Below, in pieces: positions 18,370 through 43,523 of a stretch of 43,756 bases of DNA. The notes beneath the pieces are model-generated. The model did no database searches. It was not told the DNA's origin and saw nothing but the letters and a program-made list of their open reading frames with translations. Position 1 is the stretch's first letter. Every line of letters begins with the position of its first letter. The stretch comes from Ruegeria sp. PrR005. Lineage in GTDB: Bacteria > Pseudomonadota > Alphaproteobacteria > Rhodobacterales > Rhodobacteraceae. Both the position numbers and the translations under genes were made by a program. The stretch spans positions 1 through 43,756 of the forward strand of contig NZ_JAAGOX010000017.1 in the NCBI RefSeq assembly GCF_010500245.1, written 5' to 3'.

Positions 18370-19092
18370 CTACAGGCCGCTCATCGCATTCGGCCGATAT
18401 CTCTCACCCTTCGTCAGCACAGCCCAGGCAATACGTGCCATCTTGTTGGCCATGGCGACCGCCGCGACGTTCACATGCGTTCGCTCTTTCAGAGCGTCTG
18501 CCCATGCCGTCATTGGTGACGTCCTGTCACGCACGAGATGCAGCACCGTTCGGGCTCCGTGGATGAAGAGCTTACGCAAATATCGATTGCCGTGCTTGGA
18601 GATGCCGATCAGCTTGGCCTTGCCACCTGTCGTGACCTGCCGCGGCACCAGACCAAGCCATGCGGCAAGATCACGACCTTTGCCAAAGGAGCTGCCAGTG
18701 CCGACAGCTGCTACGAGTGCTGTCGCAATCGTCGGACCTATACCGGGGATCTCCATCAGTCTCTGCATGTCAGCGTCCGTTCTGGCCAGCGCCTTGATCT
18801 CGGCATCGATGGCTGTGACCCGATCATTGATCACATCCAGTTCGGACGCCATATCAGTCACGAGCAGGCGCATTCGGGGTGAAAGATCGGCCGCGCCCTC
18901 TACGGCCAATCTCGCCAGCTCCTTTTGAAAGACATGGCACCCGGTTCCTACCCGGATGCCGCGCTCCATCAGAAAACCGCGGCCCTGGTTGATCAAGCGC
19001 GTCCTGTCCGACACGACCGCTCCGGCTTCATCCAGCCCGGCAAGACTGCAAACGGTCTTGCCCAAATCAATGCCCAGAACCTTGATGTCCAT
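18370..19092 (-). pseudogene. IS1111/IS110-family transposase with internal deletion
   Basis: 240 residues where about 340 are normal. The start MDIKVLGIDLGKTVCSLAGL and the C-terminal Tnp_20 part (IPGIGPTIATALVAAVG, LGLVPRQ, GISKHGNRYLRKLFIHGAR) are intact. The frame jumps from DEAGAVV straight to SDRTRLINQGRGFL. The missing block normally carries the acidic residues after the first Asp of the DEDD site (the MEAC and NDxxDA segments), so the protein cannot be catalytically active. The reading frame is kept across the deletion. Upstream AGGAG precedes the ATG. Confidence 0.85.
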
Positions 19093-20187: not shown

Positions 20188-21330
20188 GTGCCGAATTCGT
20201 CATCAGATTGCGATTTTGCCGTCATTGGCGCGGGCATCGCCGGGGCCTCGGTCGCGGCGGAACTCGCTGCATCGGGGCGGGTCGTTCTTATCGAACAGGA
20301 AAGCCAGCCGGGCTACCATACGACCGGCCGATCCGCAGCGGTCTACGCGCCCATCTATGGTCCGCAGCCGATCCGCGCGCTGACGCGGGCTTCGCTGGAG
20401 TTTTTCCAGAACCCGCCGGAGGGGTTCACCGACCGGGAGCTTCTCAAGCCGATCGCCGCGGCCTTTGTGGCGCGCGAGGATCAGAAGGACAGTCTCGAAG
20501 CAATGCAGCACGAACTGGTCGATGCATCCACCGTCACGCGCATCGACGCCGAGGACCTTCAAGCCCGTCTTCCGCTTTTGCGCGACGGTTATGCTGCAGG
20601 GGCCTTGTGGGACAACGGAACCTCAGAGATAGACGTGGCCGCATTGCATCAGGGCTACCTGCGGCGCTTCAAGGCCAGCGGAGGCACCTTGCTGACCCGT
20701 GCTCCGGTCACTGCGCTTGGGAAAACCGGGGACGGCTGGAAGATCCAGACCGGGAGCTCCGAAGTAACGGCGCGTGTCGTCATCAATGCCGCCGGGGCAT
20801 GGGCCGACGAAGTGGGCAGGCTGGCCGGGGCCGAGCGTATCGGCCTTGTCCCCAAACGTCGCTCGGCCTTGATGATCGCGGCACCCCAAGGGTGCGACGT
20901 GCATGGATTGCCCCTTGTGGTTGATGTCGACGAGCAGTTCTACCTGAAACCGGACGCAGGCAAACTTCTGGTTTCGCCTGCAAATGAAGACCCCGAACCG
21001 CCTTGCGATGTGCAGCCTGACGAGATGGATATCGCGATCTGCGTCGACCGGATCGAACGCGCCTTTGACATCTCGGTGCGACGGATCGAGAACTCCTGGG
21101 CCGGTTTGCGCAGCTTCGTAGCGGACAAATGCCCGGTCGTCGGTTTTTCGCGCCAGGTCGACGGCTTCTATTGGCTGGCCGGACAGGGCGGATATGGGAT
21201 CCAGTCTGCTCCGGCGCTTGCACAACTGGCCGCGGCCGAGGTGACGGGTCGAGGCATCCCCGGACACATTCAAGCTGAAAACCTGAAACCGAATGACATC
21301 CGGCCCGGGCGCAAAGGGATCGGAGCATGA
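20188..21330 (+). CDS. DauA-like FAD-dependent D-amino acid dehydrogenase
   Basis: 380 residues with a GTG start (20188); the ATG at 20161 in this frame runs into a stop. DAO fold with DFAVIGAGIAGASVAAELA, then GYHTTGRSAAVY and the C-terminal GLRSF and GQGGYGIQSAP. It resembles Pseudomonas aeruginosa D-arginine dehydrogenase throughout (DALHQGYLR-like, PKRRSA, FYLKPDAG, WAGLRSFVAD). The substrate-carboxylate residues appear kept (Tyr252, Arg308). By recalled alignment, however, Glu87 (basic side-chain recognition) is Ala91 and His48 is Val52, so D-Arg/D-Lys preference is unlikely. Expected reaction: D-amino acid to 2-imino acid with electrons to a quinone; the imine would be the substrate of the RidA protein in the same operon. 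The stop overlaps the TRAP permease start (ATGA). Confidence 0.85.
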   Translation: MPNSSSDCDFAVIGAGIAGASVAAELAASGRVVLIEQESQPGYHTTGRSAAVYAPIYGPQPIRALTRASLEFFQNPPEGFTDRELLKPIAAAFVAREDQKDSLEAMQHELVDASTVTRIDAEDLQARLPLLRDGYAAGALWDNGTSEIDVAALHQGYLRRFKASGGTLLTRAPVTALGKTGDGWKIQTGSSEVTARVVINAAGAWADEVGRLAGAERIGLVPKRRSALMIAAPQGCDVHGLPLVVDVDEQFYLKPDAGKLLVSPANEDPEPPCDVQPDEMDIAICVDRIERAFDISVRRIENSWAGLRSFVADKCPVVGFSRQVDGFYWLAGQGGYGIQSAPALAQLAAAEVTGRGIPGHIQAENLKPNDIRPGRKGIGA

Positions 21331-24156: not shown

Positions 24157-25605
24157 ATGAAGCTGATGATTGCGGCGCTGACCACGGAAACCAACAGTTT
24201 CTCGCCGATCCCGACCGGACGTCTTGCCTTCGAAGCACAGCTTCTAACGCGCGAAGGAAGCAAGGTAGAGCCGCGCATGCACAATGTGTCGCTGCATGTC
24301 TGGCGCCGTATGGCGCAGGAACGGGGCTGGGAGGTCGCCGAAAGCCTGACCGCGGCGGCACAGCCCGCGGGGCTGACGACCCGCGCCGTCTATGAAGAAT
24401 TTCGCGATGAGATCCTGCGCGACCTCGAAGCGCAAAGTCCGGACATCTTCCTGATCAACATGCACGGGGCGATGATGGCCGAGGGCTATGACGATTGCGA
24501 AGGTGACATGATGCAGCGCGCGCGGGCCATCATGGGCAGAGACAAGGTGATCGGGCTCGAGCTCGATCCCCACAATCACCTGACCCGGGCCATGCTCGAC
24601 AACGCGACCCTGATCGTCAACTACAAGGAATATCCCCATATCGACCCGGCGGACCGCGCGGTCGAGCTGTTCAACATGGCTGCTGACGCCGCCGAAGGAA
24701 AGACCCGCCCAGTGATGCGCGCGCATGACTGTCGAATGCTGACCATCATCCGCACCCTGACGGAACCGGGCAAATCCTATGTGCAGGCGATGAAAGACGC
24801 CGAGGGTAAGGATGGCATCCTGTCGGTTTCGCTCACGCACGGATTTCCCTGGGGGGACGTGGCCGATGTCGGGTCCAAGACACTGGTGATCGCCGACGGT
24901 GATGCGGACAAGGCGGCAAGTGTCGCCGAAGAATTCGCCGCTCGGCTTTGGGATATCCGCGATGGTCTGCGTCTGGACTACCCGGATTTTTCCACCGCGC
25001 TCGACATGGCCGAAGCAGCCAACGAGTTTCCAGTCACATTGGCGGACATGGGTGACAATGCAGGGGGCGGCGCACCCTCGGATTCCACCTACTTTCTAAA
25101 GGAAATCCTGAGGCGCGGGACAAAGGATGTTGGCCTCGCACAATTCTGGGATCCCGTGCTTGTAGCCATGTGCCAGGACGCGGGCGTCGGCGCCCAAATG
25201 CGGGTTCGGATCGGTGGCAAGATATGCGCCGAGTCGGGCGAGGCGATAGATCTCGACGTTACCGTGCGCGGCATTCGCGAGGACATGTTTCAGACGGTAA
25301 ATGAAATGTCGATGTCGATGGGCACGGGCGTTTGGCTGGAGGCCGATGGTGTTCACCTAATCCTGTCGTCCAAGCGCGGGCAGTGTTATTCGCCATCGGT
25401 CTTCTCCGATCTCGGGTTGGATATCGGGCGCCTGCGGATCATGGTCCCGAAGTCCACGAACCATTTCTACCAGAATTTCGACCGCGTCAGCGCGCAGGTA
25501 ATCCATGTCGGATCGCCCGGTGCGGTTACGCCGGACATCCCGAATATTCCTTTCACCAAGCGCAACGGAAACTTCTGGCCCAGGGTCGAGAACCCCTTCG
25601 CCTGA
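24157..25605 (+). CDS. M81-family metallopeptidase (MlrC-like), copy 1
   Basis: 482 residues, full length for M81 (N-terminal DUF1485-type domain, C-terminal MlrC domain). Putative zinc ligands are Glu11 (TETNSF), His103 (NMHGAMMAEGYDDCEGD) and the His residues of LDPHNHLT (139/141). MlrC hydrolyses the linear tetrapeptide from microcystin degradation, but most family members are uncharacterised amidohydrolases. In this operon it would cleave an amide bond of the imported compound in the cytoplasm; no signal peptide is seen. Start ATG is one base after the DctQ stop. It is about 70% identical by eye to the next gene. Confidence 0.87.
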   Translation: MKLMIAALTTETNSFSPIPTGRLAFEAQLLTREGSKVEPRMHNVSLHVWRRMAQERGWEVAESLTAAAQPAGLTTRAVYEEFRDEILRDLEAQSPDIFLINMHGAMMAEGYDDCEGDMMQRARAIMGRDKVIGLELDPHNHLTRAMLDNATLIVNYKEYPHIDPADRAVELFNMAADAAEGKTRPVMRAHDCRMLTIIRTLTEPGKSYVQAMKDAEGKDGILSVSLTHGFPWGDVADVGSKTLVIADGDADKAASVAEEFAARLWDIRDGLRLDYPDFSTALDMAEAANEFPVTLADMGDNAGGGAPSDSTYFLKEILRRGTKDVGLAQFWDPVLVAMCQDAGVGAQMRVRIGGKICAESGEAIDLDVTVRGIREDMFQTVNEMSMSMGTGVWLEADGVHLILSSKRGQCYSPSVFSDLGLDIGRLRIMVPKSTNHFYQNFDRVSAQVIHVGSPGAVTPDIPNIPFTKRNGNFWPRVENPFA

Positions 25606-25636
25606 TCGCCTAGCATAAGACCGAGGACTGACTGCC

Positions 25637-27085
25637 GTGAAACTGCTTATTGCCTGCCTTGCAACCGAAACCAATACGTTTTCACCGATGCCTACTGGCC
25701 GGCTCGCTTTCGAGGCCGGCATGGTCTCCCGTGAGGCGACGCGCCAGCCTGCCATGTTGTTCAGCGCGCCCCTGCACGAATGGCGGCGTATGGCAGAGGA
25801 AAAAGGCTGGGAGGTCATCGAAAGCCTGACTGCTGCTGCGCAGCCGGCGGGCCCGACTGTGCGCGCGGTCTACGAAGGTTTCCGCGACGAGATCCTCGCC
25901 GATATTGAACGGTCTCAACCCGATGTCCTGTTGATGTCGATGCACGGCGCCATGGTCGCCGACGGCTATGACGATTGCGAAGGAGACATGATGGCGCGTG
26001 CCCGCGCGGTCATGGGGCCGGACAAGGTGATCGGGCTGGAGCTTGACCCGCACAACCATCTCACCCAGACGATGCTGGACAACGCGACGTTGATCATCAA
26101 CTTCAAGGAATACCCGCATGTCGATGCGCCCGAGCGCGCGCGCGAGCTGTTCGTGATGGCCGCCGACGCCGCCGAGGGCAAGACCAAGCCGGTGATGCGG
26201 GCGCAGGACTGCCGGATGCTGACGATCATCGAGACCATGAAAGAGCCTTCCAAGACCTATGTGCAGGCCATGAAGGACGCCGAGGGCAAGGATGGTATCC
26301 TGTCGGTATCGCTCACCCATGGCTTCCCCTGGGCCGATGTCGCCGACGTGGGTGCGAGGACGCTGGTGATCGCAGATGGAGATGCAGACAAGGCCGCGCG
26401 CGTGGCCAAGGAGTTTGCGGACAAGCTTTGGAATATCCGCGATGGGTTGCGGATGGACTACCCCGATATCTCCGAGGCGCTGGACATCGTTGCCGCCTCG
26501 AACCATGGCCCGATCGCGCTTGCGGACATGGGGGACAATGCCGGCGGCGGCGCGCCTGCGGATTCTACCTTCTTCCTGCAAGAGATCCTCAGGCGCGGGA
26601 TGAAGGATATTGCCCATGGCATCTTCTGGGACCCGGTGCTGGTGACCATGTGCCAGGATGCCGGTGTCGGCGCGCGGATGCGGGTGCGACTGGGCGGCAA
26701 GATCTGCAAGGAATCCGGCGAGGCGGTGGATCTGGATGTGACCGTCCGTGCCATCCGCGAGAACATGACACAGAAGCTGGGTGAGACAGATATGCCCATG
26801 GGCACCGGCGTCTGGCTCGACGCTGACGGGGTGCACCTGGTCGTGTCCTCGCTGCGAACGCAGAATTTCTCGCCCTCGGTCTATACCGATCTGGGCATCG
26901 ACATCACCCAGATGCGCGCCCTGATCCCGAAATCGACCAACCATTTCTACCAGAATTTCGAGCGGATCAGCCCGCAGGTGGTCCATGTGCGCACCCCCGG
27001 CACCGTGACACCCGACATGACCATCATTCCTTTTACAAAGCGCGATGGAAACTTCTGGCCCAAGGTCGAAAACCCGTTCAACTGA
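25637..27085 (+). CDS. M81-family metallopeptidase (MlrC-like), copy 2
   Basis: 482 residues with a GTG start, 31 bp after copy 1. Same length and same putative metal residues (TETNTF, SMHGAMVADGYDD, LDPHNHLT). Conserved blocks such as MKDAEGKDGILSVSLTHGFP are identical in both copies, while the stretch around residues 25-45 and the C-terminal substrate region (EISPQ-like) differ. This indicates tandem duplication with partial specialisation. It could act on a related amide, or the pair could form a heteromer. It is followed after 11 bp by ridA. Confidence 0.87.
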   Translation: MKLLIACLATETNTFSPMPTGRLAFEAGMVSREATRQPAMLFSAPLHEWRRMAEEKGWEVIESLTAAAQPAGPTVRAVYEGFRDEILADIERSQPDVLLMSMHGAMVADGYDDCEGDMMARARAVMGPDKVIGLELDPHNHLTQTMLDNATLIINFKEYPHVDAPERARELFVMAADAAEGKTKPVMRAQDCRMLTIIETMKEPSKTYVQAMKDAEGKDGILSVSLTHGFPWADVADVGARTLVIADGDADKAARVAKEFADKLWNIRDGLRMDYPDISEALDIVAASNHGPIALADMGDNAGGGAPADSTFFLQEILRRGMKDIAHGIFWDPVLVTMCQDAGVGARMRVRLGGKICKESGEAVDLDVTVRAIRENMTQKLGETDMPMGTGVWLDADGVHLVVSSLRTQNFSPSVYTDLGIDITQMRALIPKSTNHFYQNFERISPQVVHVRTPGTVTPDMTIIPFTKRDGNFWPKVENPFN

Positions 27086-34298: not shown

Positions 34299-35300
34299 TC
34301 ACAGCTTCAACCGAAACTCGGTAGGTGTGACGCCGGTCCATCTCTTGAATGCTCGAGAGAAACTTGGGGCGTTCGAAAACCCGAGCATTTCGGCGATTTC
34401 CTCGTTCTTCATGGATCGCTCGCTGCCAAGGATCTCTAGTGCCTTCTGTTTTCGAACATTGTCTCGAGTCTTCTGGAACGACGTCCCCAGCCAAGTGAAG
34501 GTGCGCTGCAAGCTCTTTGGATGCACATCGATGCGATGGGCAAGGTCTTTCAAGCCAAAGGATCCTTCGCAGATCCCTTTGTGACAAGCGATTTCCAACC
34601 AAACTTTTATGGCCTCGCGTCGGGATATATCATCGAACTCTCCGCGCCTGGCAGACGGGATTTTCCAGTTCAATTCCAATGGCAGCTGTAACCATTCCGT
34701 GGGAAATCGGATCTTTACGCCGTTCCACTTTTGTTTCAAGATCGAAGGCTTTGGTACAAGGTCTGGTGGAATGCCGGCGTCTTCCTGCACTACGATCAAG
34801 ATCCGCGAGCGGTCGAACTCTTGGGCGACCGCCAATCTCAGTAAGGTTACCCAAATACTCGCGAGTGCGGCATCGGCCTGAATGATCGGTGCCGACGGGT
34901 TGAAAGTTCTCTTGCCCAAGATCACGGTGAAATCCACATTAATCTCAAGGGAATAGTGGATATTGCTGATCTGCCGATCGATTTCGAGGATTGCACGAGG
35001 AAGAAACTCGGCCAGCGTGCGTGATGCTTTGAAGCTTTCTCGAACAAAAACTGGACCAGCCTCCACGAACACCGCTGCGGCGCGGGCCGCGAAGTAGGGA
35101 TCACCGAGCGCATCAGCCATTTCCTGCTCCGCACGGTAAAGCGCATTGCCTGTAATGAGTGTCGCGGGGTCCGAGAGGTCGAAGCTTTCGAGGTGAGCGG
35201 CCCTGAGCACTCGATCGGTGTTGCCGCCTAGCTGTTCGAATAGTTCAAGAAACGGCTGAAGCTGCAGTGCACGGTTGAATGCGATCCCATCATTAATCAT
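34299..35300 (-). CDS. AraC-family transcriptional regulator
   Basis: 333 residues. The N-terminal ligand-binding part is of the arabinose_bd/OruR type (ITGNALYRAEQEMADALGDP near residues 49-68). The C-terminal AraC DNA-binding domain is at about 235-333 (HPKSLQRTFTWLGTSFQKTR, EIAEMLGFSNAPSFSRAFKR, GVTPTEFR). It is divergent from the amidohydrolase/porin/ABC operon with a 193-bp gap, so it is the likely activator of that operon. The ligand is unknown; an N-acyl or D-amino acid is a reasonable guess from the target genes. Confidence 0.9.
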   Translation of the reverse strand: MINDGIAFNRALQLQPFLELFEQLGGNTDRVLRAAHLESFDLSDPATLITGNALYRAEQEMADALGDPYFAARAAAVFVEAGPVFVRESFKASRTLAEFLPRAILEIDRQISNIHYSLEINVDFTVILGKRTFNPSAPIIQADAALASIWVTLLRLAVAQEFDRSRILIVVQEDAGIPPDLVPKPSILKQKWNGVKIRFPTEWLQLPLELNWKIPSARRGEFDDISRREAIKVWLEIACHKGICEGSFGLKDLAHRIDVHPKSLQRTFTWLGTSFQKTRDNVRKQKALEILGSERSMKNEEIAEMLGFSNAPSFSRAFKRWTGVTPTEFRLKL

Positions 35301-35493
35301 TCAGCTGTCCTACGTATGAAAACTCGACCCGGCGATACGCAAGCTTTTGCATTGCTTCTATTTAATTATCTCTTGAGGACGAAAATCAACTGCAGCTGTC
35401 CATCAGCGGTACGATAATGTGTGTCGGAAACATGTATGGTCTAACGCGAACGCCACGACTCTTGAAGCCCATCAACATTGACAGATAACGCTT
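35301..35493. promoter_or_regulatory. divergent control region, AraC regulator / amidohydrolase operon
   Basis: 193-bp AT-richer gap holding both promoters. I could not define a convincing operator or a Zur-type palindrome in it. Confidence 0.4.
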
Positions 35494-37053
35494 ATGTTCT
35501 TGAAAAACGCACTCCACTCTAGCTGCGCCTTTGCCATCTTGGTCGCCACAGCCAGCGCGGCCCTGGCCAACGACATCGTCATCATGAACGGTCGTGTGAT
35601 AGACCCTGAGACGGGCTTGGATGCAATTCGCAACGTAGCGATCCAAGATGGCCGTATCTCGGCGATCAGCGAATTCCCGCTTGAGGGCAATATCGTGGTC
35701 GATGCCACGGGTCATGTCGTATCTCCCGGTTTCATCGACCTGCATGCACATGGGCAGAGCATCGGCGACTATCGGATGCAGGCCATGCAGGGGGTGACGA
35801 CAGCGCTCGAGCTTGAATCCGGCGTATTGCCAATCGGCGACTGGTACGACGGACAGGCTGCCAAGAGCCTGCCGATCAACTACGGTGCGGCGGCGGGCTG
35901 GACCTATGGCCGGATTGCCACCTTCGACAACACTGACCCGCTGGCAACCGTCGAATTCTTCCAACAGGCCCAGGCCGAAAACAGCTGGAAGATGGACATC
36001 GCCGACCCAGTCCAGACCGGGAGAATCCTGTCGCTGGTCGAACAGGGGCTGAAGGAGGGCGGACTGGGTATCGGGGTCAACGCCGGATACGCGCCTGGAT
36101 ATGGTCAAAAAGAATACTTCGCGTTGGCCGAACTGGCCAATGAATACGGCGTCGCGACCTACACCCATGTCCGCTATGCCAGCGTCATTGAACCGCAAAG
36201 CTCGTTCGAGGCGCTGAAGGAACTGATTTCCAACGCGGCGATTACCGGCGCGCATATGCACATCTGCCACATCAACAGTACCTCGATGGCGGACATCGAG
36301 GCAACGCTGGCCCTCGTGGAAGAGGCGATGGCGCAGGGCATCAACATCACCGTCGAGGCCTATCCCTACGGCGCGGCAAGCACTGTCGTCGGCGCCGCCA
36401 TGTTCACCGGGCCGGACTGGCGGGAACGAATGCAATCGACCTCGGAGAATTTTCAGCTTGGCGCCGACCGGATGACCGAGGACGAACTCGCCGATTACCA
36501 GGCCAACAAGCCCGGCACCTTCATCACCTGGCACTTCCTGGATGAAAGCAAGTCCGAGGATCTCGCCATGCTTGACATGTCGGTGACGCATCCCGCCACA
36601 TTGATCGCTTCGGATGCGACGTTCTGGTCCTATTTCGACGACGACGGCAATATTCAGACCTATACCGGCGATGAGTGGCCACTGCCGGACAACGTGTTTG
36701 CCCATCCGCGCTCGGCCGGGACCTTCGCCAAGATCCTGCGCTCATACGTGCGTGAGCGCGGCGTGCTGTCGCTAAGCGAGGCGATCCGCAAGATGTCTCT
36801 GATGCCGGCGCAGACTTTGGAAGACTTCGTGCCACAGATGCGCCGAAAGGGCCGGCTTCAGGTGGGTATGGACGCCGATATCGTGGTGTTCGATCCCAAG
36901 ACAGTGGCGGACCGCGCGACCTTTGAGAACGCCAACCAACCGGCCGTCGGCGTGCAGACCGTGCTCGTGAACGGCGGCTTTGTCGTTCGCGACGGAAGCC
37001 TCCTCCTCGACGCGCCGCACGGACAGCCGATCCGAAGGGAACCGGCGCAGTGA
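35494..37053 (+). CDS. exported N-acyl-D-amino-acid deacylase-like amidohydrolase, copy 1
   Basis: 519 residues with a Sec signal peptide (cleavage ALA-ND near residue 26), so it should act in the periplasm. Amidohydrolase fold: GRVIDPETG then SPGFIDLHAHGQ with metal ligands His84/His86. IASDATFWS holds the catalytic Asp of the D-aminoacylase family, and HPRSAGTFAKILRSYVRE and ADIVVFDPKTVADRATF are also typical of it. Reaction expected: zinc-dependent removal of the acyl group from an N-acyl-D-amino acid. It overlaps the next gene's upstream region by little and shares its order; both are driven from the AraC-controlled gap. Confidence 0.85.
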   Translation: MFLKNALHSSCAFAILVATASAALANDIVIMNGRVIDPETGLDAIRNVAIQDGRISAISEFPLEGNIVVDATGHVVSPGFIDLHAHGQSIGDYRMQAMQGVTTALELESGVLPIGDWYDGQAAKSLPINYGAAAGWTYGRIATFDNTDPLATVEFFQQAQAENSWKMDIADPVQTGRILSLVEQGLKEGGLGIGVNAGYAPGYGQKEYFALAELANEYGVATYTHVRYASVIEPQSSFEALKELISNAAITGAHMHICHINSTSMADIEATLALVEEAMAQGINITVEAYPYGAASTVVGAAMFTGPDWRERMQSTSENFQLGADRMTEDELADYQANKPGTFITWHFLDESKSEDLAMLDMSVTHPATLIASDATFWSYFDDDGNIQTYTGDEWPLPDNVFAHPRSAGTFAKILRSYVRERGVLSLSEAIRKMSLMPAQTLEDFVPQMRRKGRLQVGMDADIVVFDPKTVADRATFENANQPAVGVQTVLVNGGFVVRDGSLLLDAPHGQPIRREPAQ

Positions 37054-37094
37054 GACAGAACCCCGAAAGACACCAGGAAGAGCGAAAGATACCA

Positions 37095-38723
37095 ATGAAA
37101 CTGAATTCGTCCTTTGCCGCGGCGGCTGTTGCATCCGCGTTATTTGTGGCCAGCGCCCTTCACGCCCAGGAATACGATCTCGTCATCCTGAATGGTCGGG
37201 TCATGGACCCCGAAACGCTGTATGACAGTGTCGCCAATGTTGGCATCAAGGACGGTCGCATTGTCGAGATTTCTAAGGATTCACTGACGGGAAAAGAAGA
37301 AATCGATGCAACCGGACACATCGTGGCACCAGGTTTTATCGACACCCATTTCCACTGGCAACAACCGATGGGCTATGCGCTTGGCCTGCGTGACGGACTG
37401 ACGTCGAGTATGGACCTCGAGGAGGGCTGCGCAGGAACATTCATCGCGCGGTGGTACGAAGAACGCGAAGGCAAGAACCAGGCGAATTTCGGGTGCGCCT
37501 CCAGCCACGAACAAGCCCGCGCCATCGTGCTCGACGGTTTCGACGACGAGGAAACCCTTCTGCTGGGGCCGGCGGCGGCGCTTACCTCCCGCAAGGGATC
37601 GGGTTGGAGTTTGGACAAGGCTGATTACGACGCTGGTAACAAGATTCTGCAGATCATCGACGAAGGCCTTCAGGCTGGCGCGCTCGGTATCGGATCGACA
37701 TTGGGATACATGCGCGATGGTGTCACCACGCGTGAGTTGTTCGAGGTGCAGAAGGTTGGCGCGCGATATGGTCGCCAAACTGCCGTTCATACGCGTTTCA
37801 CACCCGATGGCGACGTGTTGGAAAACGTCGGTGCGCAAGAAGTCATTGCCAATGCATTGGCTCTGAACGCGCCCGCAATACTGCAGCACTTCAACAATCC
37901 CGGCTGGCGACTCACGCATGAACTCATCGCGCGGCTTCAGGAAAACGGCCATAATATCTGGGGCGAGATCTACCCCTATTCCGCCGGATCGACCACGGTG
38001 AACGCAGTCTTCCTCAAACCCGAAAACTGGGTTGAAAGACAGGGGCATCGCTACGAAGACACGATGCAGGATCCGATTACAGGTGATTTCTATACGCAGG
38101 AAAAATACGATCAGGTCCTGAAGGATAATCCGACCCAGGAAATTCTGTTGTTCAAGACTCCGCCAGAGGACTCAGTCAAATGGTTGACTCTCAGGGGGAC
38201 AACAATGGCCAGCGATGCGATGTTCGCGGAACCTCTTATGGCGCCTTGGAATACTCCATTTGAGAAGTTGGGAAACATGCATCCGCGCGGCGCCGGGGCG
38301 CGCGCTGCAACACTGCGCCTTGGGCGCGAAAACGACATACCGATGATGCAGCTTTTGTCGATCCTCAGCTACAACGCAGCGCACCATCTGGGCCGTACGG
38401 GGCTGAAGGCCATGCAGGAGCGGGGCCGGATTCAGGAGGGCATGGTTGCCGATATCGTGGTGTTCGACCCCGAAACCGTTGCCGACAATGCGACCTATGA
38501 ACAGGGCTCGGTCCCCTCGACTGGGTTCAAGGCGGTGATCGTGAACGGCGCGGTGACGGTGCGTGACGATGAGCTGATAGAGGTTTTCGCTGGTCAACCG
38601 ATCCGTTTCGAGCCTGAAGACAAGCCGCGTTTCGAGCCGGTCTCGGAAGAGGCGTGGAACCGAGAATTCTCGACCGGGATGCCGGATGTGGCACCGGGTA
38701 TTCCTCCGAAAGGTGGCAATTGA
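37095..38723 (+). CDS. exported amidohydrolase (D-aminoacylase superfamily), copy 2
   Basis: 542 residues from ATG 37095, which starts a clean signal peptide (cleavage LHA-QE near residue 24); an upstream in-frame ATG at 37050 adds charged residues. GRVMDPET, then APGFIDTHFHWQQ with His85/His87, and later ADIVVFDPETVADNATYEQG match copy 1. The HPRGAGARAATLRLGREN region has diverged, and the SDA segment reads SDAMFAEP. It is a paralogue of copy 1 with probably different acyl or amino acid preference. Followed after 29 bp by the DUF3299 gene. Confidence 0.83.
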   Translation: MKLNSSFAAAAVASALFVASALHAQEYDLVILNGRVMDPETLYDSVANVGIKDGRIVEISKDSLTGKEEIDATGHIVAPGFIDTHFHWQQPMGYALGLRDGLTSSMDLEEGCAGTFIARWYEEREGKNQANFGCASSHEQARAIVLDGFDDEETLLLGPAAALTSRKGSGWSLDKADYDAGNKILQIIDEGLQAGALGIGSTLGYMRDGVTTRELFEVQKVGARYGRQTAVHTRFTPDGDVLENVGAQEVIANALALNAPAILQHFNNPGWRLTHELIARLQENGHNIWGEIYPYSAGSTTVNAVFLKPENWVERQGHRYEDTMQDPITGDFYTQEKYDQVLKDNPTQEILLFKTPPEDSVKWLTLRGTTMASDAMFAEPLMAPWNTPFEKLGNMHPRGAGARAATLRLGRENDIPMMQLLSILSYNAAHHLGRTGLKAMQERGRIQEGMVADIVVFDPETVADNATYEQGSVPSTGFKAVIVNGAVTVRDDELIEVFAGQPIRFEPEDKPRFEPVSEEAWNREFSTGMPDVAPGIPPKGGN

Positions 38724-38752
38724 AACTGCCTTGTTTGTTTGAGAGGTTTGGA

Positions 38753-39487
38753 ATGCGGTTCTTTTTGACAACTGTGGCGGCCATTCTGGCCGCAACGCCG
38801 ATGTTGGCCGATCCCCGCGCCATCGATTTCGACCAACTGCCGGATCCTGCCGCGTTGGCCTTCGAAGATCCATTCCTCGAGATGGAACTGAAGGACCTGG
38901 AAGACCTACGCACTGTCGTGCGCTTGCAAGAGCGATTGAACAGCGAGACGTTTGACACCAACACGCGAAACAGGCTTGCTGCTCAGGTCAATGAGGCCCG
39001 CAGATCGCTGGCGCAAGAAGGCCATGACATTGAGGAACTGCTGGCGGCCCGTTGGGAGGTGGCAATTCAACGAAAACGCGCCAAGCTCGCAACCAATCCT
39101 GCTTTTGACAGTGCCGAAGTTGTCCTGAATGGGTTCCTGATACCCGCTGAAACCGACCCGGACGGTGCTGCGGTAGGTTACCTGGTGTCCGAGATCGGGC
39201 TATGCAGTCACAAACCGGCACCGCCGCCGAACCAGTTGGTGCGCGTCCGTTATGAGGGAAGTTTTCCAACCAGGAACCTGTATGTGCCAGTCCGCGTTAT
39301 GGGCACCTTGTCTACGGACCCAAAAGATCAGACAATATTCATGTTGGATGGCACCGTGCGCATGACCAGCATGTGGAATTTGTCTGCTTACAGGATCACC
39401 GTGCAGGGACCAGTCGCGGAGGTCGAGGTCGGCCAAGGCGCGCAGGGCGGTATCGATCCTTTGGCCGTCGTGCAGGGTTCGGAATGA
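38753..39487 (+). CDS. DUF3299 periplasmic protein, copy 1
   Basis: 244 residues from ATG 38753 (GAGAGG upstream) with a signal peptide (cleavage MLA-DP near residue 19). A Glu/Arg-rich helical middle part (45-115) precedes the DUF3299 domain. The motif C-x-H-x-P-x-P-P-P-N-Q begins at Cys151/His153 and recurs in copy 2 at 42867-43523, which suggests a metal- or partner-binding site. In Pseudomonas a DUF3299 protein (PA4066) belongs to a Zur-regulated ABC operon. Here one copy is placed between the amidohydrolases and the porin. Confidence 0.8.
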   Translation: MRFFLTTVAAILAATPMLADPRAIDFDQLPDPAALAFEDPFLEMELKDLEDLRTVVRLQERLNSETFDTNTRNRLAAQVNEARRSLAQEGHDIEELLAARWEVAIQRKRAKLATNPAFDSAEVVLNGFLIPAETDPDGAAVGYLVSEIGLCSHKPAPPPNQLVRVRYEGSFPTRNLYVPVRVMGTLSTDPKDQTIFMLDGTVRMTSMWNLSAYRITVQGPVAEVEVGQGAQGGIDPLAVVQGSE

Positions 39488-39546
39488 ACAGCCTGAAACG
39501 AAGCCTGGATGTGTTTCACCAACTTAATTCCTTTGGGCGCTGACAG

Positions 39547-40803
39547 ATGATCTTTGCGCAACCTGGGTCTTTGCTCGGCCCTCGTCCCTGCAGGAGCAGG
39601 GCGGGACTGGTGATTTTTTCTCTTTTGTTGCTTTTCGCATATCCGGCGCAACCGCATGCACAAAGCTTGGAGAACCTCGGATTCGAGTCGCACCTCAGTG
39701 TAGCTGGCACACTCGCGGCTGAGGCCGAGGGTCAGAGAACTGGTCTCCTTGAGGGGGCAATCGCCCAGAGAAAGAACTTCGAAGCTCGAACCGGCGTCTC
39801 CTTCGGTATCGACAATCAAATCCAATACTTGGGCACGAATTCCGGCAAAAAACCTTCTGACGCATCTTCGAATGCGTTTCGCATCTATGGCACATGGAGG
39901 GCCGTGGGTCAGAACACGTCGAACGACGGTACGTTGGTTTTCAAGGTCGAGAACCGATCCGCCATCGGAAACAGGATGTCCACACAGGCGCTTGGGCCGT
40001 CTCTTGGGTATGCCGGTCTGTTCTCATCCACCTTCAGCGATGCGGGCTGGGTCTTGACCAATTTCTATTGGCGCCAGCGCTTTGCGAGCGGTCGCGGCAG
40101 TTTCGTGATCGGACAGGTCGATGTCACCGACTATGTGAATGTCGATGGGCTGGCGAACCCCTGGACGGCGTTTACAAATCTTGAGTTTCAGCAGCAATCA
40201 ACCTTTCCGGCCCCCAGTCAGGGTTTGGGCGCTGCACTCAGGTGGCGGGTCGATAATAATTGGGTCATTCTGGCTGGTTTCGCACACGCAAATGGAGATC
40301 CATCTGACCTAGGTCGAAGCGCAAAAGACCTTTTCGAGACCGGCGAAACCTTCAAGCATTTCGCAATCGGCTGGACCCCTGATTGGGGGGCACTCTTTGA
40401 TCGGCTCTTGCAGCTTACAGTCTGGCAGGTTGATGAACGCACTGCAGCCGGCGTTCCGGAGGGTCATGGCATCTCATTTGCCGCAAGTGGCCGTTCCGGT
40501 TCCTGGCATCGTACGTTCCGCGTCGGTTATGCAAACGGTGGTGGTACTGCGCTGGATCGTTCGATCAGCTTTGCGACTGCATACGAGGCACGCGGTGGTA
40601 AGGACTTAGCCGGCCTTGGATTGAATTGGGGACGTGCACCTGGAAGTTCGCTGAATCAGTACACGCTGGAAGCGTTTTACCGTTATGATCTGAACGATTT
40701 CTTCCAGATCACGCCTCAGGTTCAATATGTTGTGAATCCGATCGGCGATCCGAGCTCTGACGGCATCGCGGTCTTCGGAGTACGTTTGAGAGCAGTATTT
40801 TAA
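39547..40803 (+). CDS. OprB-like outer-membrane porin
   Basis: 418 residues with a signal peptide (hydrophobic core 20-33, cleavage near HAQ 38-40), alternating amphipathic strands rich in aromatic residues, and a terminal Phe (RLRAVF), the assembly signal of outer-membrane barrels. Segments such as NFYWRQRFASGRGSFVIGQV and NPWTAFTNLEFQQQSTFPAP resemble the carbohydrate-selective OprB family. It would admit the substrate of the periplasmic deacylases. Ribosome site is weak. It is followed by the ABC genes after 43 bp. Confidence 0.82.
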   Translation: MIFAQPGSLLGPRPCRSRAGLVIFSLLLLFAYPAQPHAQSLENLGFESHLSVAGTLAAEAEGQRTGLLEGAIAQRKNFEARTGVSFGIDNQIQYLGTNSGKKPSDASSNAFRIYGTWRAVGQNTSNDGTLVFKVENRSAIGNRMSTQALGPSLGYAGLFSSTFSDAGWVLTNFYWRQRFASGRGSFVIGQVDVTDYVNVDGLANPWTAFTNLEFQQQSTFPAPSQGLGAALRWRVDNNWVILAGFAHANGDPSDLGRSAKDLFETGETFKHFAIGWTPDWGALFDRLLQLTVWQVDERTAAGVPEGHGISFAASGRSGSWHRTFRVGYANGGGTALDRSISFATAYEARGGKDLAGLGLNWGRAPGSSLNQYTLEAFYRYDLNDFFQITPQVQYVVNPIGDPSSDGIAVFGVRLRAVF

Positions 40804-40846
40804 CACTGTTGGGGCTGTGTCAAAATAACCGAGGGGAGTGTATCGA

Positions 40847-41533
40847 ATGAGGGCGTTGCACGTCGAAAACCTGACTTTCAATTGGCCAGGGTCGGAAAAT
40901 GCGACGCTGCGAATACCAAACCTGTCGCTAGCTCAGGGTGAGCGGAATTTCTTGTTTGGCCCCAGCGGGTGCGGAAAATCCACGCTCCTCTCAGCTATCG
41001 CAGGCGTGGTGGATGTTTCACCGGGGGCTATCCTGGTCGCGAACAACGACGTAGGCGCGTTGAATGGCGGTGCGCGGGATCGGTTCCGGGTGGACCATAT
41101 CGGCATGATCTTTCAGGTGTTCAATCTGATTCCGTGGCTGAGCGCGCTCGAGAACGTCCTTCTGCCCTGTACATTTTCCAAGCGTCGGCTTGCGCGCGCG
41201 GGTGAGGATCCTGCGGGAACGGCCCGACATCTGCTCGACGAATTGGGCCTGTCGGATCCGTCCCTGGTATCCAAGCCAGCCAACGAACTCAGCGTGGGCC
41301 AGCAACAACGGGTTGCCGCCGCGCGCGCGCTGATCGGCAAGCCGGACCTGATCCTGGCGGACGAGCCGACCTCGGCGCTCGATGAGGCGGCCAAGGCGGT
41401 CTTTGTCGATCTGCTGGCGAGGGAATGCGCCGAAGCGGGCAGCGCGCTGCTCTTCGTCAGCCATGACCGCAGCCTGGAGCATCATTTCGACCGCAGTGTT
41501 GATTTCGTCGCCCTCAACGGGGGCGCGGCCTGA
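40847..41533 (+). CDS. MacB/LolD-type ABC ATPase
   Basis: 228 residues from ATG 40847 with GAGGGGA upstream. Walker [10 protein letters not shown] (about residues 39-47), signature [15 protein letters not shown], Walker [15 protein letters not shown]-loop SHDRS. The size and pattern are those of LolD/FtsE/MacB ATPases, not importers. It overlaps the permease start by one base (TGATG). It is the equivalent of PA4064 (ZrmB-like) in the Pseudomonas zinc-starvation operon. Confidence 0.87.
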
Positions 41534-42846
41534 TGCTAGTGTTCAGCCTGCGCAGCCTGTGGAACCGCCGCTTCGTGGCCGGCCTGACCGTGCTGGCCAT
41601 CAGCCTCAGCGTCGCGTTGATCCTCGGTGTTGAGCGGCTCCGGGACGGCGCGCGCGACAGCTTTGCCAACTCCGCGTCAGGGATCGACCTGATCGTGGCG
41701 CCGCGCGGCAATTCGGTGCAGATCCTGATGGCCACCGTCTTCGGCGTCGGCGGCACCGGGACGGGCATGACATGGGACAGCTTCGAGTGGCTGGAAGATC
41801 GGCCCGAGGTGGCCTGGGCGGTCCCGATCCAGATGGGCGACAATCATCGCGGCTATCCGGTGATCGGGACGGATGCATCGTATTTCGAGCATTTCCGGCA
41901 CTCCGGCGGTCAGCTTCTCTCCCTCGCCGCAGGCACGATCCTTACCGGTGACGGGGCGGATGCCGCCGTGGTCGGGGCCGAGGTCGCGGTGCGGTTCGAC
42001 TATGCCCCCGGTGCGGTGATCGTCAACGCCCACGGCTCGGGCGAGGTTTCTTTCGACCTGCACGACGACGCGCCCTTCACAATATCGGGTGTGCTCGCGC
42101 CGACGGGTACCGCCGTCGACCGGATGGTCTTCGTCACGCTCGAAGGGTTCGACGCTCTGCATGCGGAAGAAGATGCGCCTGCCGCCGACCCCCTCGACCC
42201 GGCCGCCATGCCCACCGACGATCATGAAGATCATGACGATCATGAAGATCACGGCGAACACGAAGGCACGGAGGTCAAACACAGTCACGAACCGGACCGG
42301 ATCAATGCCGTCTACGTTGGGCTGGTCGATCGGACAAATGTACTCGGTCTGCAGCGGGCCATCAACGAACGCTCCTCCGATGCGTTTAGCGCAGTCCTCC
42401 CGGCGGTCGCGCTCGCCGAGCTCTGGGGGATTACCGGGACAGCGGAGCGCGCGATGCGACTGATGGCGTGGGCCGTGGCTTTGGCAGGGATGATTGGCAT
42501 GGTGGTCATGCTCTCTGCGACCCTCGACACCCGCCGCCGCGAATTCGCGATCCTGCGGTCTGTTGGCGCCACGCCCACCCGTATCTTTGCGCTAATCGTC
42601 GCCGAGGCTGCCATCCTCACCGCGGCGGGGCTGATCATCGGCCTTGTTCTGCTCACGGTGGCCACGTTCGTGACCGACCCGATCCTGTCTGCCCGTTTCG
42701 GTCTGAGGTTGGGATTGAATGTCTTCGGTGCGCGCGAATTGGCCACCCTTTTCGTCATCTTCTGGGCCGGGCTCCTCGCCTCGCTCATCCCGGCCGTCCG
42801 GGTCTACCGCATGACGCTGGCCGACGGGCTGTCGGTTCGGCTATGA
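41533..42846 (+). CDS. MacB/FtsX-type ABC permease with His/Asp-rich loop
   Basis: 437 residues with four membrane helices: one N-terminal (about 16-34) and three C-terminal (about 310-335, 350-385, 400-430), the FtsX topology with a large periplasmic domain between. Residues 230-246 (DHEDHDDHEDHGEHEG) form a His/Asp/Glu-rich loop on the periplasmic side, encoded by a 9-bp tandem repeat, which is a good metal-binding candidate. MacB-type permeases transmit mechanical force to periplasmic partners rather than import. It probably works with the flanking DUF3299 proteins. It is the equivalent of PA4065. Confidence 0.87.
   Translation: MLVFSLRSLWNRRFVAGLTVLAISLSVALILGVERLRDGARDSFANSASGIDLIVAPRGNSVQILMATVFGVGGTGTGMTWDSFEWLEDRPEVAWAVPIQMGDNHRGYPVIGTDASYFEHFRHSGGQLLSLAAGTILTGDGADAAVVGAEVAVRFDYAPGAVIVNAHGSGEVSFDLHDDAPFTISGVLAPTGTAVDRMVFVTLEGFDALHAEEDAPAADPLDPAAMPTDDHEDHDDHEDHGEHEGTEVKHSHEPDRINAVYVGLVDRTNVLGLQRAINERSSDAFSAVLPAVALAELWGITGTAERAMRLMAWAVALAGMIGMVVMLSATLDTRRREFAILRSVGATPTRIFALIVAEAAILTAAGLIIGLVLLTVATFVTDPILSARFGLRLGLNVFGARELATLFVIFWAGLLASLIPAVRVYRMTLADGLSVRL
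42220..42255 (+). repeat. 9-bp coding tandem repeat (His/Asp loop)
   Basis: Four units GATCATGAA, GATCATGAC, GATCATGAA, GATCACGGC encode DHE-DHD-DHE-DHG in the periplasmic loop of the permease. Repeat-number change would vary the His count without shifting the frame. Confidence 0.85.
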
Positions 42847-42866
42847 TAAATGAAGGGGATTCCTCC

Positions 42867-43523
42867 ATGACCATGTTCGCCCGCTTCGTCTTGATATTCT
42901 CGCTTGCCGTTTCTCCGGGTCACGTACAGGCGACTGAACCTCAGGAAATCTCGTGGGATACGCTTGCACCTCCGGCCACCGTGATTGAAAACCCGTTCGA
43001 GAACCTCACCGATGACCAGATGGACAGCTTGCGCCAGATCCTGCGGTTCGAAGCACGGGCGGAGCGGAGTGATGACGCTGAAGCTCGCGCCGAAGCGCAA
43101 GCGTTGCGCAAACAATTGGCCGAGGACGGTCTCGATGTCGACGGGTTGTTCGCCGCGCGCCTCGCGATCATGGAAGAACGTGAAGCTGCGGCCACCGAGG
43201 TGAACGAAGACCTTGTTGGCATGAGCGTCCGCCTGCCGGGCTATGTTCTCCCTCTGGAATTTAAGGGTCGCAAGGTTGTCGAGTTTCTTCTCGTGCCCAC
43301 AGTCGGCGCCTGTATCCATACTCCGCCGCCGCCCGCCAACCAGATCGTCCATGTCGTGTATCCCGAGGGCATCGAGGTTAGCGGTCTCTTCACCCCGGTA
43401 TGGATCACCGGGACCATGGTCGCCCAGAGTTCGGTTCAGACGGTTGGCTATGTCGACGGACAGGCTCCGGTTTCTGTCAGCTATTCGATGCAGCCGCTGC
43501 TGGTCGAGGACTATAGCAGCTGA
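42867..43523 (+). CDS. DUF3299 periplasmic protein, copy 2
   Basis: 218 residues from ATG 42867 with GAAGGGGA 8 bp upstream; an ATG at 42843 overlapping the permease stop (ATGA) is an alternative that adds 8 residues. The signal peptide ends near residue 23 (HVQATE). A helical acidic segment (45-110) precedes the DUF3299 domain, with the motif C149-I-H151-T-P-P-P-P-A-N-Q. It shares architecture and the Cys-x-His motif with copy 1. It is the last gene of the operon, as PA4066 is in the zrm operon. An IS6 remnant and the IS21-like end follow within 160 bp. Confidence 0.82.
   Translation: MTMFARFVLIFSLAVSPGHVQATEPQEISWDTLAPPATVIENPFENLTDDQMDSLRQILRFEARAERSDDAEARAEAQALRKQLAEDGLDVDGLFAARLAIMEEREAAATEVNEDLVGMSVRLPGYVLPLEFKGRKVVEFLLVPTVGACIHTPPPPANQIVHVVYPEGIEVSGLFTPVWITGTMVAQSSVQTVGYVDGQAPVSVSYSMQPLLVEDYSS

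What the first reader, a model, noticed from the sequence alone, without database searches (positions are those of the whole stretch)
35494..43523. Periplasmic deacylases + porin + MacB-type ABC + two DUF3299 proteins: possible undescribed system
The last three genes mirror the Zur-regulated PA4064-PA4066 unit (ATPase, FtsX-like permease, DUF3299) of Pseudomonas aeruginosa. Here the unit is joined to two exported, metal-dependent D-aminoacylase-like enzymes, an OprB-like porin and a second DUF3299 protein under an AraC regulator. All components are outer membrane, periplasm or inner membrane. One model: uptake and deacylation of an N-acyl amino acid (perhaps a metal chelator), with the ABC unit and DUF3299 proteins supplying or guarding metal for the enzymes. 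The MacB topology argues against simple import.
Basis: partly seen in the sequence, partly recalled or inferred. Interest (0 to 1): 0.75.

Follow-up and report, generated by a model that had tools for sequence, protein, structure and literature searches.

The report
Metal transporter joined to exported hydrolases
This is an operon that joins a variant of a known zinc-linked membrane transporter to exported metal-dependent enzymes and a porin; related combinations recur in many marine bacteria, which suggests that the transporter helps supply or manage metal for those enzymes.

Summary
The seven genes and the divergent AraC gene are present as described. The last three are the Zrg/PA4064-PA4066 unit, altered: no ZrgA match in the genome, a His/Asp-rich disordered loop in the permease instead, and no Zur-box-like site in the window, although this genome has such sites at znuA-zur. 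Loop and ZrgA never co-occur among 76 permeases, but few evolutionary events underlie this. The link to exported amidohydrolases is not confined to this genome: stand-alone DUF3299 genes like the window's first lie within 5 kb of one in 48 of 53 cases, against 4 of 70 at ZrgA operons. It recurs in Roseobacteraceae, Roseibium, Ferrimonas, a planctomycete and a verrucomicrobial bin, sometimes with DUF3299 fused to a NicO nickel/cobalt transporter. The ABC unit recurs behind different hydrolase sets. Best reading: a substrate-induced periplasmic hydrolase operon with its own metal-handling unit; direction of transport, metal, substrate and regulation are unproven. A known kind of transporter in a variant and setting that my searches did not find in print.

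The parts
34299..35300 (-). AraC-family regulator gene, divergent from the operon
   Evidence: PF12833 66.8 bits; Arabinose_bd 25.8, just under its cut-off 27.6; a divergent AraC-like gene also stands at many related clusters
35301..35493 (.). intergenic region, likely promoter of the operon (inferred); no Zur-box-like site
   Evidence: best match to TGTTATANTATAACA in the stretch tested has 5 mismatches; 0 matches with up to 3 in the whole window
35494..37053 (+). AmdA, exported amidohydrolase, PRK09061 subfamily (N-acyl-D-glutamate deacylase-like)
   Evidence: NF006560 725 bits, cut-off 340; PDB 3gip E 6e-33; signal-peptide-like N-terminus by eye
37095..38723 (+). AmdB, second exported amidohydrolase (D-aminoacylase-like)
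   Evidence: PF07969 45.8 bits; NF006560 326 bits, below cut-off; PDB 1rjp E 1.8e-21; H102, E124, H247, H280, D389 (numbered from the ORF start 37050) identical in 46 aligned relatives
38753..39487 (+). DUF3299 protein 1, stand-alone type
   Evidence: PF11736 58.3 bits; invariant C151, H153 in 16 relatives (alignment A1); signal-peptide-like N-terminus by eye
39547..40803 (+). OprB-family porin
   Evidence: PF04966 53.7 bits
40847..41533 (+). ABC ATPase (ZrgC/PA4064-like)
   Evidence: PF00005 103.5 bits
41533..42846 (+). MacB/FtsX-type permease (ZrgB/PA4065-like)
   Evidence: PF02687, PF12704; AlphaFold2 model mean pLDDT 82.3 matches MacB 5gko E 1.6e-15
42172..42288 (+). segment coding for the His/Asp/Glu-rich periplasmic loop of the permease (residues 214-252)
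   Evidence: pLDDT below 50 over 214-252; 7 His and 14 Asp/Glu in 39 residues; absent from the five ZrgA-type permeases in alignment A3
42843..43523 (+). DUF3299 protein 2, OB-fold, PA4066/ZrgE-like
   Evidence: PF11736 121.8 bits; model mean pLDDT 90.9 matches 4hsp E 1.2e-11

Best explanation
A periplasmic hydrolase operon, probably under AraC control, that carries its own metal-handling unit. Likely working: a small substrate enters through the OprB-like porin; two exported, metal-dependent amidohydrolases cleave it in the periplasm; the ATPase and MacB-type permease, whose periplasmic domain holds invariant histidines and a His/Asp-rich loop in place of the ZrgA protein, together with the two DUF3299 proteins (OB-fold), keep catalytic metal (probably zinc, possibly cobalt or nickel) available to, or in balance for, the enzymes. 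Expression would have moved from zinc (Zur) control to control by substrate. Shown from sequence: gene content, homology, signal-peptide-like N-termini, the loop, no ZrgA match, no Zur-box-like site, recurrence with exported hydrolases. Inferred: metal binding, metal identity, direction of transport, delivery to the enzymes, AraC control, substrate.
For: DUF3299 recurs beside amidohydrolases in three architectures: stand-alone type 48 of 53 within 5 kb, NicO fusions 7 of 11, His-loop MacB units 11 of 24, against 4 of 70 at ZrgA operons. A check with Pfam instead of my own profiles: among 100 neighbour ORFs at 18 ZrgA loci of the window's family, no amidohydrolase family matched two or more members, while CobW matched 4. 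NicO is fused to DUF3299 in six Pfam-checked proteins of the window's family and in Bythopirellula. The NicO fusion at L139 sits beside genes that read as a COG0523-like GTPase and a ZnuA-like protein (by eye). Other DUF3299 neighbours include PhoD, arginase-family and metallo-beta-lactamase-fold proteins, families that use metal as I recall. Loop and ZrgA exclude each other: 50 ZrgA only, 21 loop only, 5 neither, 0 both, of 76. PA4063, the ZrgA of P. aeruginosa, has His-rich loops of its own (PMC8561739, passages). Zur-box-like sites (up to 3 mismatches): 22 of 47 ZrgA loci, 3 of 10 loop-type units without hydrolase, 0 of 18 regions at hydrolase-linked loci. The ABC cassette is 83-92% identical in DNA between the window and L035, L036, L109, L126, whose hydrolase sets differ.
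Against: No metal has been measured, and PA4066 is described as without evident ability to bind zinc (PMC11481552, passages). That paper argues that PA4064-PA4065 exports pyochelin-cobalt. PRK09061-type genes occur in 9 of 23 genomes without any DUF3299, and in six of the other 14 (G433, G438, G467, G517, G596, G606) the AmdA-like gene lies on another contig or over 30 kb from the listed DUF3299 genes, so the link is not obligatory. Five stand-alone genes have no amidohydrolase near (L173, L174, L178, L182, L184) and 13 of 24 His-loop units have none. Seven of 10 loop-type units without hydrolase also lack a Zur-box-like site, as do 25 of 47 ZrgA loci. Some partners are serine-type beta-lactamase-family proteins. 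The loop/ZrgA exclusion rests on 1-2 informative independent pairs, not significant. Eight of 12 amidohydrolase-linked permeases are one clade.
Confidence: 0.45

Rival explanations
1. Export/clearance model: the MacB-type pump with DUF3299 removes a chelator, a chelator-metal complex, or a harmful product of the hydrolases; enzymes and pump together deal with a metal-binding compound.
For: Permease fold is that of MacB, LolCDE and the heme exporter HrtBA. PA4064-PA4065 is reported as exporting pyochelin-cobalt (PMC11481552, passages). In four Ruegeria loci (L200, L201, L202, L229) a HlyD-family adaptor gene lies just before the ATPase gene (Pfam for L229; similarity for the others), and L128 has a weaker match there. 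Weaker matches also lie elsewhere in the hydrolase-bearing loci L117, L129 and L168.
Against: No HlyD-family hit among the eight window genes and no match to the Ruegeria adaptor in the window's last 15.7 kb; the barrel is OprB-family, not TolC. The same pump sits with different enzyme sets. Vibrio work points to zinc acquisition for the homologous unit (PMC9817125, PMC9820375, passages).
Confidence: 0.25
2. DUF3299 is not a metal protein but an accessory OB-fold protein that binds substrate or enzyme, and the ABC unit acts as a mechanical switch on the hydrolases, as FtsEX does on peptidoglycan hydrolases.
For: DUF3299 has an OB-like fold; the permease also matches FtsX; a mechanical role for this ABC class is described (PMC6355983, seen only in the listing; otherwise recalled).
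Against: Does not explain the His-rich loop, four invariant periplasmic histidines, NicO fusions or the Zur-box-like sites of relatives.
Confidence: 0.12
3. Gene traffic only: the metal cassette and hydrolase cassettes gather in the same mobile regions without working together.
For: Mosaic identities along the cluster; an IS110-type transposase gene in the window; the R. conchae cluster lies on a plasmid.
Against: Co-directional arrangement with short gaps in the window, and recurrence in several phyla and with three DUF3299 architectures.
Confidence: 0.13

Closest known systems
ZrgABCDE of Vibrio / PA4063-PA4066 of Pseudomonas aeruginosa
   Same: ATPase, MacB-type permease and DUF3299 protein
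   Different: No ZrgA found; His-rich loop in the permease instead; no Zur-box-like site; joined to amidohydrolases, a porin, a second DUF3299 and an AraC gene
MacAB-TolC type exporters
   Same: Permease fold (5gko, E 1.6e-15)
   Different: ATPase and permease are separate proteins; no adaptor or TolC-type channel among the window cluster's genes
N-acyl-D-amino-acid deacylases (3gip N-acyl-D-glutamate deacylase, 1rjp D-aminoacylase)
   Same: Sequence similarity of AmdA and AmdB; His/Glu/Asp positions kept among 46 relatives
   Different: Signal-peptide-like N-termini; the Cys of the GNCG stretch of 3gip is not kept in AmdA (alignment); activity unknown
mlr microcystin-degradation genes
   Same: Some relatives carry M81/MlrC-family (L150) or MlrB-like beta-lactamase-family genes (L156, L157) in the cluster; the window has two M81 genes some 8 kb to the left
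   Different: MlrA was not searched for; amidohydrolases are not part of mlr as I recall; papers seen only as a search listing

Membership tests
Zrg/PA4063-PA4066 transporter | ABC ATPase plus FtsX/MacB-like permease | tested here: met
   Pfam; model and fold match
Zrg/PA4063-PA4066 transporter | DUF3299 protein (ZrgE/PA4066) | tested here: met
   PF11736 121.8 bits; 4hsp
Zrg/PA4063-PA4066 transporter | ZrgA (PF10986) zinc-binding protein | tested here: not met
   No match in the genome (the 14 control genomes were silent too, but the same model matches 4 of 4 candidate proteins at other loci); none from base 28001 of the window on
Zrg/PA4063-PA4066 transporter | Zur control | tested here: not met
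   0 sites with up to 3 mismatches in the window; the motif is found at znuA-zur of this genome. The test is weak for one locus: only 22 of 47 ZrgA loci have a site at this threshold
Zrg/PA4063-PA4066 transporter | role in zinc nutrition | not testable with these tools
   needs mutants and metal assays
MacAB-TolC exporter | MacB permease fold | tested here: met
MacAB-TolC exporter | periplasmic adaptor (HlyD/MacA family) encoded with it | tested here: not met
   no HlyD-family Pfam hit among the eight genes; one Ruegeria adaptor used as query finds none in the window from base 28001 on; adaptors elsewhere in the genome not searched
PRK09061 amidohydrolase subfamily (NF006560) | score over curated cut-off | tested here: met
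   AmdA 725 against 340; AmdB 326, not met
N-acyl-D-amino-acid deacylase | deacylase activity | not testable with these tools
   sequence similarity only
mlr microcystin cluster | mlrA, mlrB, mlrC, mlrD together | not tested
   only M81 genes noted in the window

The most novel reading that the evidence does not exclude
DUF3299 is a periplasmic OB-fold metal carrier dedicated to exported metallohydrolases, and is powered in different lineages by a His-loop MacB-type ABC unit, by a fused NicO transporter, or works alone with a porin: a portable metal-loading cassette for periplasmic enzymes, under the control of the enzyme's substrate rather than of zinc.
Probability: 0.27. Interest if true: 0.8.

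Novelty: new variant of a known kind. Interest (0 to 1): 0.6.

Why it matters
How exported enzymes acquire zinc or another metal in the periplasm is largely unsettled (recalled). DUF3299 and the Zrg/PA4063-PA4066 unit have disputed roles (zinc acquisition in Vibrio, pyochelin-cobalt export in Pseudomonas). Clusters that tie this unit to named enzyme classes, apparently outside the Zur regulon, give an assayable readout (enzyme metal content and activity) for its function, and the loop-for-ZrgA exchange hints at what ZrgA does.

Tried and rejected
Zur control: tested and not supported for the window. Association in one genome only: rejected. Microcystin-type degradation: considered because of MlrC/MlrB-family neighbours, not pursued; no substrate can be named. 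Phylogenetic test of the loop/ZrgA exclusion: too few independent events, so the Fisher p of 2e-14 and the genome-level co-occurrence p of 4e-5 (14 of 23 genomes with PRK09061 also have DUF3299, against 88 of 394 overall) are not corrected for kinship.

Limits of the tests. A first Zur-box pattern with a wrong spacer found 2 of 47 and was replaced by the 15-base palindrome suggested by the enriched 7-mers, so motif and test share the ZrgA loci; the outside check is its place at znuA-zur in this genome. That genome scan gave 3 palindromic sites with up to 2 mismatches and the reversed control pattern gave as many, so the motif alone is weak. The 18 hydrolase-linked regions include stand-alone and NicO loci that may never have been Zur-controlled; those with an ABC unit are eight loci and the window, seven of them with the window in one permease clade. 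Loop means at least 7 His in some 60 residues; L081 is borderline and lies outside the loop clade; L079, counted as neither, has a ZrgA in its locus but further than 5 kb away. My amidohydrolase profiles were built from this cluster type and can miss others: L112 has one by Pfam that they did not flag. The control for this scanned 100 ORFs, up to 6 a locus of 18 ZrgA loci of the family, out of 269 listed for 47 loci; ORFs over about 800 aa were left out; a single-member amidohydrolase match could be hidden in the part of the table not shown.

Sampling. Of 33 rows, those of G010, G013 and the second place in G017 were not fetched. Of 71 rows, G353 and G154 were not. From the match list (itself cut) 40 stretches were fetched, 32 chosen for unusual scores or lengths and 8 typical ones. 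Genes in relatives were called as longest ORFs by script, not by a gene finder.
Full report
WHAT IS THERE. The window carries, left to right, a divergent AraC gene (34299-35300) and seven co-directional genes: amidohydrolase AmdA, amidohydrolase AmdB, DUF3299 protein 1, an OprB-family porin, an ABC ATPase, a FtsX/MacB_PCD permease and DUF3299 protein 2. Gaps are 29-59 bp up to the ATPase; ATPase and permease share one base; permease and DUF3299-2 overlap by four. Promoter- and terminator-like sites are no more frequent than in shuffles (2 against 3.1 and 8 against 9.5). The window is the whole of contig C17.

THE TRANSPORT UNIT. A profile of DUF3299-2 and relatives matches PDB 4hsp (E 7e-38), and the predicted fold does too (E 1.2e-11; the entry is titled PA4066); all other fold matches, many of them OB-fold domains, are weaker (E 2e-3 or worse). 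The permease model (mean pLDDT 82.3) matches MacB 5gko best (E 1.6e-15), then LolCDE and others, including the heme exporter HrtBA. Residues 214-252 are below pLDDT 50 and hold 7 His and 14 Asp/Glu. In alignments of 20 and of 22 permeases H105, H167, H177 and H210 are invariant.

ZRGA REPLACED BY A LOOP. At typical loci a ZrgA gene stands with the ATPase gene (PF10986 in 4 of 4 proteins tested). The window genome has no match (where the built-in controls were silent too). Among 76 distinct permeases with room for a neighbour, 50 have ZrgA and no loop, 21 a loop and no ZrgA, 5 neither, 0 both; seven more lacked room and were dropped. Caution: on the tree the main loop group is one supported set of 22 rows that also holds two loop-free members (L084, L204), and only 1-2 independent informative pairs exist. 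A distant group (L092-L108) has loops in some members and no ZrgA, and fell below the score limit.

REGULATION. The palindrome TGTTATANTATAACA was derived from sequence around ZrgA genes: 22 of 47 have a site with at most 3 mismatches, against 0.8% of shuffles. In the window's genome the motif lies twice between znuA and a gene that reads as zur (C16). The window has no site with up to 3 mismatches. Of 30 regions at variant loci, 18 belong to hydrolase-linked loci and none of these has a site (best 4-7 mismatches); of ten loop-type units without a hydrolase nearby, L130, L140 and L212 have one (2-3 mismatches) and seven do not; L084 and L119, neither loop-type nor hydrolase-linked, do not.

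RECURRENCE. DUF3299 was found in 56 of 387 genomes of the class and 88 of 394 of the family. Among 187 distinct DUF3299 genes at the loci held, an amidohydrolase (my profiles, score over 60) lies within 5 kb at 4 of 70 ZrgA operons, 48 of 53 stand-alone genes of the window's DUF3299-1 type, 11 of 24 loop-type units, 7 of 11 NicO fusions, 1 of 8 units with neither ZrgA nor loop, and 2 of 21 other stand-alone genes. Three of the four ZrgA cases are one locus, L180, where two clusters adjoin. OprB-family genes lie within 3 kb of 33 of the 53. As a control free of my profiles, 100 neighbour ORFs at 18 ZrgA loci of the family were scanned with Pfam: no amidohydrolase family matched two or more of them; CobW matched 4 and ZnuA 1, a zinc setting. 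Among the first 49 named loci (L149-L197) 43 show an amidohydrolase; 26 of the 49 are titled Ruegeria, so they are not independent. They include Seohaeicola saemankumensis (full window order), Shimia aestuarii, Pseudothioclava arenosa, Primorskyibacter aestuariivivens, Roseibium, the gammaproteobacterium Ferrimonas sediminicola and the planctomycete Bythopirellula polymerisocia; further down, a Verrucomicrobiales bin (L206) has amidohydrolase, OprB and a DUF3299-NicO gene. The annotation of a Ruegeria conchae plasmid shows AraC, amidohydrolase, DUF3299 and carbohydrate porin, then, on the other strand, DUF3299, permease, ATPase and a biotin/lipoyl-binding (HlyD-type) protein.

THE OWN GENOME. 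It has four DUF3299 genes at three loci, each with an amidohydrolase beside it: the window; C43 (AraC, amidohydrolase, DUF3299, PhoD, OprB); and C6 (amidohydrolase, ion channel, DUF3299 fused to NicO).

MODULARITY. Against Seohaeicola, AmdA is about 100% identical in protein (rounded), AmdB 83%, DUF3299-1 75%, porin 79%, permease 94%. A genome of the same genus (G002, L036) shares the ABC cassette at 92% DNA identity from base 40957, inside the ATPase gene, but has three other amidohydrolases just before it; with L035, L109 and L126 similarity starts at 40949 (83-86%). This may be a recombination point or just faster change at that end. Either way one kind of transporter cassette stands behind different hydrolase sets.

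CO-OCCURRENCE THE OTHER WAY. PRK09061-type genes at E 1e-70 occur in 23 of the 394 family genomes; 14 of these also have DUF3299 and 9 do not (Fisher p 4e-5 without kinship correction). In six of the 14 the AmdA-like gene is far from the listed DUF3299 genes. Of ten AmdB-like matches (310-336 bits) nine lie in the clusters described and one (G517 C6) does not, by comparing coordinates.

MECHANISM. For metal handling speak the invariant His positions and His-rich loop of the permease, the NicO fusions, the Zur-box-like sites of relatives, and partners mostly of families that use metal (amidohydrolases, PhoD, arginase family, metallo-beta-lactamase fold, M81; metal use recalled). Serine-type beta-lactamase-family neighbours do not fit this and are told as such. 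Direction is open: Vibrio work supports zinc acquisition (PMC9817125, PMC9820375), Pseudomonas work pyochelin-cobalt export (PMC11481552); four Ruegeria loci carry an adaptor gene that favours export. Of these papers and PMC8561739 I read passages only.

LITERATURE. Four held papers contain the word DUF3299 and none holds it together with amidohydrolase; searches with DUF3299/zinc, ZrgA/NicO and MacB/zinc/amidohydrolase showed no such arrangement in titles and abstract openings. The library covers open-licence papers only.

VERDICT. It is a variant of the Zrg-type unit in a new setting, with a plausible but untested role in metal supply to exported hydrolases.

Noticed in passing
L005:8106-11184 (G000 C6): DUF3299 fused to a NicO nickel/cobalt transporter domain, beside an ion-channel gene and an amidohydrolase.
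   Followed up: partly
window 24157-27085: Two tandem M81/MlrC-family genes, with a FAD-dependent (DAO) oxidoreductase gene (20188-21330) and a TRAP transporter gene nearby; M81 also occurs inside the cluster of Shimia aestuarii (L150).
   Followed up: partly
L114:9354-11166 and L112:9272-13648: DUF3299 beside arginase-family genes with signal-peptide-like starts, a further possible metalloenzyme partner.
   Followed up: no
L033:14948-17568: About 2.6 kb extra between AmdA and AmdB in a genome of the same genus, with a short AmdB-like fragment.
   Followed up: no
L230 (G000 C2:150987-151001): Perfect Zur-type palindrome with no gene that I recognised as zinc-related in the 3 kb held.
   Followed up: no
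window 18370-19092: IS110-family transposase gene (PF02371).
   Followed up: no
L092-L108: A distant DUF3299/permease group in Alphaproteobacteria, some with very His-rich permease loops (up to 22 His in 60 residues) and no ZrgA found.
   Followed up: partly
18 ZrgA loci of the family (alignment A6): Ordinary ZrgA operons tend to have CobW-family neighbours (4 of 100 ORFs scanned), the usual zinc-starvation company.
   Followed up: no
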